Assembly: GCF_001043115.1 (NCBI RefSeq)
Contig: NZ_LFME01000031.1
Location: 1 to 64,000 of the forward strand
Source of the DNA: Xanthomonas sp. NCPPB 1128
Lineage (GTDB): Bacteria; Pseudomonadota; Gammaproteobacteria; Xanthomonadales; Xanthomonadaceae
Length of the DNA stretch: 64,000 nt
Reading direction: 5' to 3'
In this document: positions 12,427 to 14,403 of the stretch, one piece after another
Numbering within the stretch: position 1 is the first letter of the stretch
Layout: the number at the start of each line of letters is the position of its first letter
Program-made: the position numbers and the translations under genes
Notes under the pieces: generated by a model
The model's database searches: none
The model's input: only the letters and a program-made list of their open reading frames with translations
Told to the model about the DNA's origin: nothing

Positions 12427-13173
12427 TCACTCCGACAAGCGCGTGCCGAGCACGCTGCCCTGCGCGCGCAGCCGTTCCAGCAGGGCCGCGCCCTCGTGCA
12501 GCAGAGCGGCCGGCGCAAGGCCGTGCGCGGCAGCCAGGTCCAGCAGCAGCGCCCGCCCGCTGCGCGTGCCGGCGTGCAGCGCCGCCAGCACGTCATGGGC
12601 CAGCGGCGCCAGTTCGGCGAAGCGGACCTGGCCGTCGGTCTCGCGTCGCGCCAGCAGGCAGGTCGGTTGTGCCGGCGCCGTGTCCGGCTGCCAGGCCGGG
12701 CCGATGCGCTGCACCGGCCAGCGGTAGCGCAGCAGGCGCAGCCAGGGCGACAGCAGCGGGATGCCGTCGAGCAGGTCACCGTGCGGATCGTGCGGCGGCA
12801 GCGCGGCATCGTCGATCTGCACCTGCAGTTCCACGGTTTCGTAGTGCGCCAGCTCGGCCAGCCAGGGGCGCTGCGGATCGGGTGCGCGCTGCGCCAGGAA
12901 CGCCACCAGTTCCTCACCCAGGCGCGGGAACAGCGGCGTGCGGGCGCGGTGGTCGGCGCAGAACGCGCGCAGCAGCGCCGTCCAGTCGGCGTCGCCGAGG
13001 GTGGCGCGCAGCACCGGGAACTGGCCGCCGAGCAACTGCGCCAGGTTGTCGAAGAACAGGGCGCGGTACACGGCCAGGCGCTGCGGCGGGATATCCGCCG
13101 GCGGCGGGTACCGCTGCGGATCGCGCAGGTGCCGGGTCAGCGCGAACTGTTGCGCGCGCAGGGTGTCGCTCAT
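12427..13173 (-). CDS. hvfC: HvfC-like DUF2063 partner protein of the MNIO RiPP enzyme
   Basis: A 248-residue soluble protein beginning MSDTLRAQQFALTRHLRDPQ. The N-terminal DUF2063 domain (about 5-100, 'YRALFFDNLAQLLGGQFPVL') is the conserved partner of DUF692 enzymes. In related systems such partners bind the precursor peptide and deliver it to the oxidase. The ATG overlaps the stop of hvfB (ATGA, 13170-13173), giving tight translational coupling. It is the last gene of the hvfABC unit; rnt begins about 40 bases beyond its stop on the same strand. Confidence 0.88.
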   Translation of the reverse strand: MSDTLRAQQFALTRHLRDPQRYPPPADIPPQRLAVYRALFFDNLAQLLGGQFPVLRATLGDADWTALLRAFCADHRARTPLFPRLGEELVAFLAQRAPDPQRPWLAELAHYETVELQVQIDDAALPPHDPHGDLLDGIPLLSPWLRLLRYRWPVQRIGPAWQPDTAPAQPTCLLARRETDGQVRFAELAPLAHDVLAALHAGTRSGRALLLDLAAAHGLAPAALLHEGAALLERLRAQGSVLGTRLSE

Positions 13174-14015
13174 GCGTCGAGCGATTGCGCCTGCACGGCG
13201 CGGATGCGCTGCACTTCGTCGAGCAGTTCGTGCAGCGGCGGGAACTGACCGTCGCGCTCCAGCACGGTGGGACGCACGCCGTGCAGGCGATAGGCGGCGG
13301 CGAGCAGGTCCCACACCGGGTCGACCACCGGCGCGGCATGGGTGTCGATCTTCAGCCCGCTGGCGGCGTCGTCGCGATGGCCGGCGACGTGGTACGAGGC
13401 GATGCGCGCGCTGGGCATGGCGGCGAGGAAGGCCAGGGCATCGTCGCCGTGGTTGCAGGCGTTGACGTGCACGTTGTTGACGTCCAGCAGCAGGTCGCAG
13501 TCGGCCTCGTCCAGCACCGCGGCCACGAAGGCGGCTTCGCTCATCGCCCGGCCGGGGGCAGCGTAGTAGGAGACGTTCTCCACCGCGATGCGCCGGCCCA
13601 GCGCGTCCTGCACCTGGGCGATGCGCGCGCCGACGTGGCGCACGGCCTCGTCGGTGAACGGCAGCGGCAGCAGTTCGTAGAGTTGGCCGTCGTCGGCGCT
13701 GTAGCTGAGGTGCTCGCTGTACAGTGCGACCCGGTGCCGGTCGAGGAACTGGCGGGTCTGCTGCAGCAGGGTGGTGTCCAGTGCGGCCACACCGCCGAGC
13801 GACAACGACAGGCCGTGGCAGCTGAGCGGATGCCGCGCGCTCAGCGTCTGCAACAGTTCCCCGGGCCGGCCGCCGACGCCGATCCAGTTGTCCGGTGCGC
13901 ATTCGAGGAAATCAAACGCATCGGTTGCTGCTTGCAGCAGGTCCGGCAGCAAACCGCGACGCAGCCCGAGGCCGGCGCTGGCCGCAGCAAGGGGGCTCGA
14001 TTCAGAGGCTGCCAC
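13170..14015 (-). CDS. hvfB: HvfB-like MNIO enzyme (DUF692, multinuclear non-heme iron oxidase)
   Basis: A 281-residue TIM-barrel enzyme of the DUF692/MNIO family, which oxidatively modifies cysteine residues of RiPP precursors. Visible motifs are 'APDNWIGVGG', 'CHGLSLSLGG', 'YSEHLSYS', 'VENVSYY', 'LLLDVNNVHVN' and 'HVAGH', which include the conserved His/Asp/Glu/Asn metal-ligand region. No ATG fits; the GTG at 14015 is used because GGCGAGGGC lies just upstream, inside the end of hvfA, and it opens directly on the family N-terminus ('AGLGLRRGLLPDL'). It overlaps hvfA by 14 bases and hvfC by 4, so the three are translationally coupled. Confidence 0.9.
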   Translation of the reverse strand: MAASESSPLAAASAGLGLRRGLLPDLLQAATDAFDFLECAPDNWIGVGGRPGELLQTLSARHPLSCHGLSLSLGGVAALDTTLLQQTRQFLDRHRVALYSEHLSYSADDGQLYELLPLPFTDEAVRHVGARIAQVQDALGRRIAVENVSYYAAPGRAMSEAAFVAAVLDEADCDLLLDVNNVHVNACNHGDDALAFLAAMPSARIASYHVAGHRDDAASGLKIDTHAAPVVDPVWDLLAAAYRLHGVRPTVLERDGQFPPLHELLDEVQRIRAVQAQSLDA

Positions 14016-14403
14016 CGCATTTGCCCTCGCCGCACTTGCCTTCGGCCATGGCCTTGTCGTCGTGCTTGGCCTGGGGCGTGGCGGCGCGACCGGCTGCCTC
14101 GGGCTTGGCCGGCGTCGCCGCCGGTGCGTGCGCGCCGCAACCGCCGTCGCCGGCCTTGGCGCCGCAGCCGCCTTCGCTGGCCTTGGCCGGATCGGCGGCC
14201 TGCCTGGCCTGCGCCGGCGGCGCGGGCGTCGGCGTTGCCGGCGCGGTCGCCTCGGTGCTTTGCGGCGGGGTGACGGCCGCCTGCGCGCCCAGCGCATAGC
14301 CCTGGGCGAGATCGGTCATGGCCAGCGCGGAGGCGGACAGGCCGATCCCGCCGAGCAGGACCGCACCGGCGAGGGCAGGGGACGGACGGGGCGATCTGGA
14401 CAT
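14002..14403 (-). CDS. hvfA: HvfA-like secreted Cys-motif RiPP precursor (bufferin type)
   Basis: A 133-residue precursor with a long signal peptide (about 1-28, 'ALAGAVLLGGIGLSASALA'), an Ala/Pro-rich low-complexity spacer and four (E/D)GxCG motifs: EGGCG and DGGCG in the middle, and EGKCGEGKCG at the C-terminus. These are its only cysteines. Related precursors from Haemophilus and Caulobacter are reported to have such cysteines modified by the MNIO enzyme to copper-binding heterocycles and to be exported by Sec. Here the same is inferred from motifs and gene order. A CAGGAG site precedes the ATG. No DoxX-like fourth gene (hvfD) is adjacent. Confidence 0.88.
   Translation of the reverse strand: MSRSPRPSPALAGAVLLGGIGLSASALAMTDLAQGYALGAQAAVTPPQSTEATAPATPTPAPPAQARQAADPAKASEGGCGAKAGDGGCGAHAPAATPAKPEAAGRAATPQAKHDDKAMAEGKCGEGKCGGSL

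What the first reader, a model, noticed from the sequence alone, without database searches (positions are those of the whole stretch)
12427..14403. hvfABC: MNIO-modified, Cys-motif secreted peptide system without the usual DoxX partner
The order precursor (signal peptide, four (E/D)GxCG motifs), DUF692 oxidase and DUF2063 partner is read directly, with 14- and 4-base overlaps showing one translational unit. In characterised homologues such peptides carry oxidised cysteines that bind copper and help buffer it in the periplasm. The precursor here is unusual in having its four motifs split into two groups (EGGCG..DGGCG and EGKCGEGKCG) by a long Ala/Pro spacer. No hvfD/DoxX gene and no copper-efflux gene lie nearby; the neighbour is an RND pump set of different regulation. 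This is the best candidate for an under-described system in the window.
Basis: partly seen in the sequence, partly recalled or inferred. Interest (0 to 1): 0.82.

Follow-up and report, generated by a model that had tools for sequence, protein, structure and literature searches.

The report
Stripped-down copper-binding peptide operon
This Xanthomonas operon probably makes a small exported peptide whose cysteines an iron enzyme turns into copper-binding rings; the system is a known and common one, but in this genus the peptide lacks the calcium-binding part that most relatives carry and the enzyme lacks a conserved substrate-contact residue.

Summary
hvfA (14403-14002), hvfB (GTG 14015-13170) and hvfC (13173-12427), minus strand, overlap by 14 and 4 bases. 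hvfB and hvfC pass NCBI's HvfB/HvfC cut-offs; hvfA passes the KCGExKCG domain model only. This is an HvfABC ("captophorin") locus; published members turn cysteines into copper-binding 5-thiooxazoles.

Two points called unusual are not. DoxX is near hvfB in 20 of 80 relatives and in none of the 18 genomes of the window's genus that have hvfB. Two separated motif groups are usual: 53 of 86 distinct precursors from outside that genus have EF-hands between the groups.

What I did not find described is a genus-level change. All 17 intact distinct precursors of the genus lack EF-hands. All 23 HvfB rows (18 genomes) have Gly, Ser or Ala where 97 of 97 other rows have Phe, inferred to be FonB's substrate-contact Phe250. 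Third-position Lys falls to 37 of 56 motifs against 410 of 456. Only the C-terminal EGKCGEGKCG stays constrained genus-wide.

Verdict: a known kind, modest new variant; chemistry and copper role are inferred.

The parts
14002..14403 (-). hvfA: precursor peptide, 133 aa, signal-peptide-like N-terminus, four (E/D)GxCG motifs, no EF-hand
   Evidence: NF050137 22.5 bits over cut-off 19.5; 0 Pfam families
14320..14403 (-). signal-peptide-like segment, residues 1-28
   Evidence: read by eye; no predictor run; several positions invariant in 16 aligned genus rows
14275..14319 (-). conserved MTDLAQGYALGAQAA segment just after the signal peptide, candidate docking site for HvfC (inferred)
   Evidence: QGYAL invariant in 16 of 16 genus rows; QGY in 17 of 17 genus and 63 of 86 other distinct precursors
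14134..14175 (-). N-terminal motif group EGGCG (14175-14161) and DGGCG (14148-14134)
   Evidence: 0 to 2 motifs in this group across the genus
14014..14043 (-). C-terminal tandem EGKCGEGKCG
   Evidence: one search finds both; pN/pS 0.12 for residues 116-131 over 16 genus rows
13170..14015 (-). hvfB: MNIO (DUF692) oxidase, GTG start
   Evidence: PF05114 and NF003818 over cut-off; 3bww E 1.5e-61
13248..13250 (-). Gly codon (Gly256 from the GTG) right after the inferred catalytic Asp255, in place of the Phe found in 97 of 97 rows from outside the genus
   Evidence: 3bww has Phe here
12427..13173 (-). hvfC: DUF2063 plus NGO1945_C (RRE) partner protein
   Evidence: PF09836, PF22106, NF050145 over cut-off
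14455..14460 (-). TAGGCT, a TANNNT element upstream of hvfA, candidate -10 box (weak inference)
   Evidence: TA[G/C]GCT in 17 of 17 aligned genus rows; the generic sigma-70 scan found 0 promoters
11732..12385 (-). RNase T-family exonuclease gene downstream: conserved neighbour, not argued to be part of the system
   Evidence: PF00929; downstream in the same direction in 47 of 80 relatives

Best explanation
hvfABC is a captophorin (HvfABC, Lys-Cys type) operon. Shown: three overlapping genes encoding an exported Cys-motif precursor, an MNIO oxidase and its DUF2063/RRE partner, kept under purifying selection. Inferred from characterised homologues: HvfC holds the precursor in the cytoplasm by its N-terminal part (signal peptide and the conserved LAQGYALGAQ segment); HvfB, through a mixed-valent di-iron centre and O2, converts the Cys of the EGKCGEGKCG tandem, and perhaps of EGGCG and DGGCG, to 5-thiooxazoles; the peptide is exported by Sec and binds copper in the periplasm, lowering copper stress. 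Inferred here: in this genus the peptide is a stripped-down form that lost the EF-hand pair, keeping a C-terminal two-site core and 0-2 extra sites on a fast-evolving Ala/Pro/Thr-rich linker, while its enzyme lost the conserved Phe after the catalytic Asp. DoxX is not needed at this locus in this lineage.
For: HvfB and HvfC equivalog models over cut-off, HvfA domain model over cut-off. Residues invariant over 120 HvfB rows include the Arg pair, Asp225, His227 and Asp256 of the alignment numbering, which fit FonB Arg15/Arg16/Asp249 and HvfB Asp242/His244 (mapped by motif, not by a FonB alignment). Purifying selection on hvfA, pN/pS 0.31 over 7 close relatives. 18 of 20 genomes of the genus keep hvfB. 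DoxX-free context conserved. EF-hand absent in 17 of 17 distinct intact genus precursors, with 0 Pfam matches in the 21 rows of A1, of which one was read off-frame, against 30 of 30 EF-hand matches in A2. Phe to Gly/Ser/Ala in 23 of 23 genus rows against 97 of 97 Phe. Published Ala variants of FonB Phe250 remain active (PMC13097082 section 14), so the loss need not inactivate.
Against: No chemistry, expression or copper data. Full-length HvfA equivalog not met (19 of 95 bits). HvfC has no PDB relative at E 1e-3 by phmmer. One genome of the genus has no MNIO (G111) and one only bufferin-type MNIOs (G206); in G208 the hvfA frame is interrupted by a stop, so the system is dispensable. The N-terminal motif region is only weakly constrained over 16 rows (pN/pS 0.82; alignment uncertain there). 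In published work a single EGKCG repeat was not modified, so the spaced N-terminal sites may not be. No recognisable copper-responsive promoter was found.
Confidence: 0.85

Rival explanations
1. The system is decaying in this genus: EF-hands, N-terminal motifs and the enzyme's Phe have been lost stepwise and the modified peptide no longer matters much.
For: Broken hvfA frame in G208, no MNIO in G111 and no hvfB of this type in G206, N-terminal motif lost in L121 and L009, second C-terminal motif CG changed to CS in L118.
Against: pN/pS 0.31 over the gene and 0.08 for the C-terminal core in 7 close relatives, 0.12 for the core over 16 rows; 18 of 20 genomes keep hvfB; active-site polar residues invariant.
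Confidence: 0.08
2. The peptide is modified but serves another purpose than copper buffering, such as binding another metal, oxidative stress, or a task linked to the phoU/pst neighbourhood.
For: phoU lies upstream and the exonuclease gene downstream in 42 of 80 relatives without DoxX, and in 2 more with DoxX; the reviewed authors themselves suggest roles beyond copper (PMC12452194 section 21).
Against: The characterised captophorins described in PMC13097082 generally bind copper (section 11); neighbourhood conservation within one family is expected from general synteny and is no evidence of joint function.
Confidence: 0.12
3. The ORFs are a chance arrangement in a GC-rich genome and hvfA is not a gene.
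For: Long overlapping ORFs on both strands are common here.
Against: Family matches over cut-off, genus-wide conservation and purifying selection.
Confidence: 0.01

Closest known systems
Haemophilus influenzae hvfABC(X) / oxazolin (PMC13419390; abstract and sections 4 and 23 seen)
   Same: Order of precursor, MNIO and RRE partner; signal peptide; EGKCGEGKCG core; conserved iron-site residues
   Different: HvfA there has three AEGKCGEGKCG motifs in a row and the operon has a DoxX-like HvfX; here four motifs in two groups, no DoxX, and Gly instead of Phe after the catalytic Asp (mapping inferred; its close relative 3bww has Phe)
Fontimonas thermophila fonABC / fontiphorin (PMC13097082; abstract, sections 7, 11-14 and search passages seen)
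   Same: Lys-Cys type MNIO with PME1 partner, EGKCG repeats, Arg-Arg pair
   Different: FonA has seven sites; FonB has Phe250 at the position that is Gly here (inferred mapping)
Buf_EGKCG with EF-hand fusions, 'second type' (PMC12452194; abstract, passages, sections 15 and 21 seen)
   Same: Same gene order and peptide family; close relatives in the family carry EF-hands
   Different: That type has EF-hands fused at the C-terminus of a short motif domain; relatives here mostly have EF-hands between two motif groups (53 of 86), and the window's genus has none
Microbulbifer mmrABC / bulbicupramide (PMC12538549; passages only)
   Same: MNIO plus DUF2063 partner plus EGKCG precursor with conserved leader; the word DoxX does not occur in its main text
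   Different: Five to eight Cys in tandem cassettes; copper binding measured there
Bufferins (BufABC, with DoxX)
   Same: MNIO and DUF2063 class, copper protection
   Different: The window's HvfB scores 267.6 against BufB's cut-off 310; 5 of 20 genomes of the genus carry separate MNIO pairs of 42-46% identity with a DoxX between them

Membership tests
HvfABC / captophorin, Lys-Cys type | MNIO enzyme of the HvfB family | tested here: met
   NF003818 390.9 bits, cut-off 360
HvfABC / captophorin, Lys-Cys type | PME1 partner (DUF2063 plus RRE) | tested here: met
   NF050145 258.9 bits, cut-off 142; PF09836 and PF22106
HvfABC / captophorin, Lys-Cys type | Precursor with repeated EGKCG-type motifs | tested here: met
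   NF050137 over cut-off; four motifs. The full-length equivalog NF050188 is not met (19 of 95 bits), as expected for a diverged architecture
HvfABC / captophorin, Lys-Cys type | Sec signal peptide on the precursor | tested here: inconclusive
   Judged by eye and by conservation; no predictor run
HvfABC / captophorin, Lys-Cys type | Substrate-contact residues Arg-Arg and Phe (conserved in the published logo, not a definition) | tested here: inconclusive
   Arg pair present; Phe replaced by Gly in the window, by Gly, Ser or Ala in 23 of 23 genus rows, Phe in 97 of 97 others. A published Phe to Ala variant stays active
HvfABC / captophorin, Lys-Cys type | DoxX gene in the cluster (frequent, not defining) | tested here: not met
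   No DoxX at the locus; 20 of 80 relatives have one within the flanks held. PMC12452194 section 15 says the core genes occur 'in various combinations'
HvfABC / captophorin, Lys-Cys type | 5-thiooxazole on Cys and copper binding | not testable with these tools
   Needs mass spectrometry, NMR or metal binding
Bufferin 1 (DUF2282) | DUF2282 precursor | tested here: not met
   0 matches in the genome; BufB model below cut-off
Buf_EGKCG with EF-hand | EF-hand domain in the precursor | tested here: not met
   0 Pfam families

The most novel reading that the evidence does not exclude
In this genus enzyme and substrate changed together: HvfB lost the Phe that in FonB contacts motif positions 3 and 5, and the precursor lost its EF-hands and drifted to motifs such as DGGCG, DGSCG and EGGCG (first-position Asp in 7 of 56 motifs of the genus, 0 of 456 outside). 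The result would be a captophorin maturase of altered or relaxed specificity that can modify isolated, non-Lys sites in a disordered linker, and a minimal copper peptide uncoupled from calcium binding. Against it: non-Lys motifs such as EGSCG and EGGCG also occur with Phe enzymes, EF-hands were also lost in lineages that keep Phe (L051, L062, L103, L108; L110 also lacks them), and members of the genus with no N-terminal motif also lack Phe.
Probability: 0.3. Interest if true: 0.5.

Novelty: new variant of a known kind. Interest (0 to 1): 0.36.

Why it matters
It places a plant-associated genus in a recently defined copper-peptide class and gives a natural experiment: a single clade in which the enzyme's conserved substrate-contact residue and the precursor's calcium-binding module are both gone. 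That makes two open questions testable: which residues set site choice in 5-thiooxazole enzymes, and what the EF-hands of the other precursors are for. It also shows that DoxX is dispensable for most relatives at this locus.

Tried and rejected
Rejected: (1) missing DoxX as a peculiarity. A whole-genome DoxX search in 50 of the 80 named relatives found DoxX somewhere in 41; I compared positions by eye, and the one candidate near a hvf locus (L066) turned out to be a PhoU-like stretch. (2) The RND pump as partner: it lies in a block absent from L033 at this place. In the upstream alignment only the window and L113 share that flank (2 of 17 rows). (3) A second EGKCG precursor elsewhere in the genome: none by exact degenerate pattern (diverged ones would be missed). 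(4) A bufferin-1 precursor in the genome: none.

Led nowhere: the EF-hand search in 24 whole genomes was too weak per genome to place EF-hands in precursors, so precursors were scanned directly. The promoter scan found nothing. Papers naming both DUF692 or UPF0276 and Xanthomonas gave 3 and 0 listings, of which I read none. Structure prediction was not run: sequence matches already fix the fold and coordinates would not be shown.

Weak points of my own counts: in alignment A1 one row (L051) was read off-frame, so its Pfam count is 0 of 20 usable rows plus one bad row; A3 leaves it out. In one search the DoxX label was left off loci L100-L112 by a slip, so I do not use that count. Rows dropped before counts: L069, L070 (cut off by contig ends), L100 (extraction failed) and L122 (interrupted frame). 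The 23 genus rows stand for 18 genomes, and the 97 others also contain doublets. 'Genus' means the tool's genus group: three loci named or close to Xanthomonas (L040, L081, L103; HvfB 71-74% identical) fall outside and have Phe. The EF-hand calls rest on a pattern; Pfam confirmed 30 of 30 that I tested out of 81. The tree (quick method) gives 1 change for the Phe column, but the far outgroup lacks Phe too and L037 and L103 sit at an unresolved base, so direction is inferred from Phe in 3bww and in the published logo.

Full report
What is there. On the minus strand, hvfA (14403-14002), hvfB (GTG 14015-13170) and hvfC (13173-12427) overlap by 14 and 4 bases. hvfB matches PF05114 (331.1 bits) and NCBI's HvfB model NF003818 (390.9, cut-off 360); hvfC matches DUF2063, the NGO1945 C-terminal domain and the HvfC model NF050145 (258.9, cut-off 142); hvfA passes the KCGExKCG domain model (22.5, cut-off 19.5) but not the full-length HvfA model (19 of 95). 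hvfB has a solved relative, 3bww, at E 1.5e-61; hvfC found none at 1e-3. The genome holds one MNIO, one DoxX on another contig, no DUF2282 bufferin, and the degenerate EGKCG pattern only in hvfA.

Where it is. The nearest named relatives are Xanthomonas: L033, Xanthomonas sp. F10, has HvfB 94% identical. In the tool's genus group 18 of 20 genomes have hvfB at 78% identity or more; G206 has only bufferin-type MNIOs and G111 none. In the family sample 154 of 198 genomes have an MNIO match, and in the order sample 67 of 101 genomes match the HvfA motif model. The kind is common.

DoxX. Among 80 named relatives with up to 6 kb on each side, a local DoxX profile (seeded with Pfam hits) finds DoxX near hvfB in 20, with a clean gap in score to the rest. 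In the 18 genus genomes with hvfB, every Pfam DoxX lies on another contig or more than 1 Mb away. Of 72 relatives with at least 3 kb on both sides, 40 have phoU upstream and the RNase T-family gene downstream without DoxX, 17 have DoxX and neither neighbour, 10 none of the three, 4 phoU only, 1 all three. The lack of DoxX thus belongs to the phoU-hvfABC-exonuclease context. In the window phoU lies at 22782-22075, separated from hvfA by a block of about 7.6 kb that holds the RND set and that L033 lacks there.

Precursor architecture. Of 86 distinct precursors outside the genus, 53 have EF-hands between two motif groups, 28 have them after the motifs, and 5 have none; of 17 distinct intact ones in the genus, 17 have none. 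Pfam agrees: EF-hand families in 30 of 30 tested rows of A2 and no family in the rows of A1 (21 rows, one read off-frame). The published survey names only 17-residue-repeat precursors and precursors with EF-hands at the C-terminus (PMC12452194 section 15). I did not find the between-groups form or the EF-hand loss described in the listings or in the sections read; most subscription papers and all supplements were out of reach.

Constraint. Over 7 close relatives, uncorrected pN/pS is 0.31 for hvfA, 0.22 for the signal and QGY part, 0.54 for the linker, 0.07 for the N-terminal motif region, 0.38 for the spacer and 0.08 for the C-terminal core. Over 16 genus rows the same regions give 0.30, 0.78, 0.82, 0.77 and 0.12 after the signal value, with 0.58 for the whole. 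Genus-wide, then, the start and the C-terminal tandem are kept, and the N-terminal motifs come and go: spacing lists show 2 motifs in that group in 7 of 17, 1 in 8 and 0 in 2. One of the 18 genomes, G208, has its hvfA frame interrupted by a stop.

Enzyme. Over 120 HvfB rows the polar active-site residues are invariant, including the Arg pair and the Asp after Glu-Arg. Right after that Asp, 97 of 97 rows outside the genus have Phe, while 23 of 23 rows of the genus have Gly (13), Ser (8) or Ala (2). Three other conserved columns shift as well: Cys to Ser, Asp to Glu, and Asn to Gln or His. By motif this Phe should be FonB Phe250, which lies at substrate Lys3 and Gly5 in the published model; Ala and Asp variants there keep activity and the Asp variant accepts a changed position 3 (PMC13097082 section 14). 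The mapping was not tested with the FonB sequence. Motifs drift in parallel: Lys at position 3 in 37 of 56 motifs of the genus against 410 of 456, and Asp at position 1 in 7 of 56 against 0 of 456. These are counts of related sequences, not independent events. On the tree the Phe column needs 1 change and EF-hand presence 6; EF-hand loss also happened in lineages that keep Phe, so the two are not tightly coupled.

How it works. From the homologues: HvfC binds the precursor and lets HvfB reach its active Fe(II)/Fe(III) state (PMC13419390 abstract and sections 4, 23); Cys become 5-thiooxazoles, two repeats losing 8 Da; the products bind copper (PMC13097082 sections 11, 12). A single repeat was not modified by FonBC, a DGKCG repeat pair was fully modified, and Ala, Arg or Thr at position 3 were tolerated. 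So the C-terminal tandem here is the surest substrate; EGGCG and DGGCG are plausible but unproven. All chemistry at this locus is inference.

Regulation. A TA[G/C]GCT element lies about 50 bases before the hvfA start in 17 of 17 aligned genus rows, but the generic promoter scan found nothing. No regulator of copper response was identified.

Verdict. A real, ordinary member of a known copper-peptide class with a genus-specific simplification of the peptide and an unusual substitution in the enzyme. Interest is moderate.

Noticed in passing
window 14461-22072: A block with an outer-membrane factor, a TetR regulator, a membrane-fusion protein, an RND pump and an SDR-like gene sits between phoU and hvfA; L033 lacks it at this place, and only the window and L113 share the flank in 17 upstream rows. 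It looks like a lineage-specific insertion.
   Followed up: partly
L123-L128 and L130-L133 (genomes G199, G202, G205, G206, G207): Five of 20 genomes of the genus carry a pair of bufferin-type MNIOs (42-46% identical to HvfB) with a DoxX gene between them; beside L125 a Cys-Lys type peptide stretch is visible.
   Followed up: no
L122 (genome G208): hvfA frame interrupted by a stop upstream of the C-terminal motifs while hvfB stays open.
   Followed up: no
L033-L112: phoU upstream and an RNase T-family exonuclease gene downstream flank hvfABC in 44 of 80 named relatives (2 of them with DoxX too), mostly Xanthomonadaceae. Probably plain synteny; a phosphate link is untested.
   Followed up: partly
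L010-L112 precursors: A QGY-containing segment just after the signal peptide is kept in 17 of 17 genus and 63 of 86 other distinct precursors; it may be the recognition site for the RRE partner.
   Followed up: no
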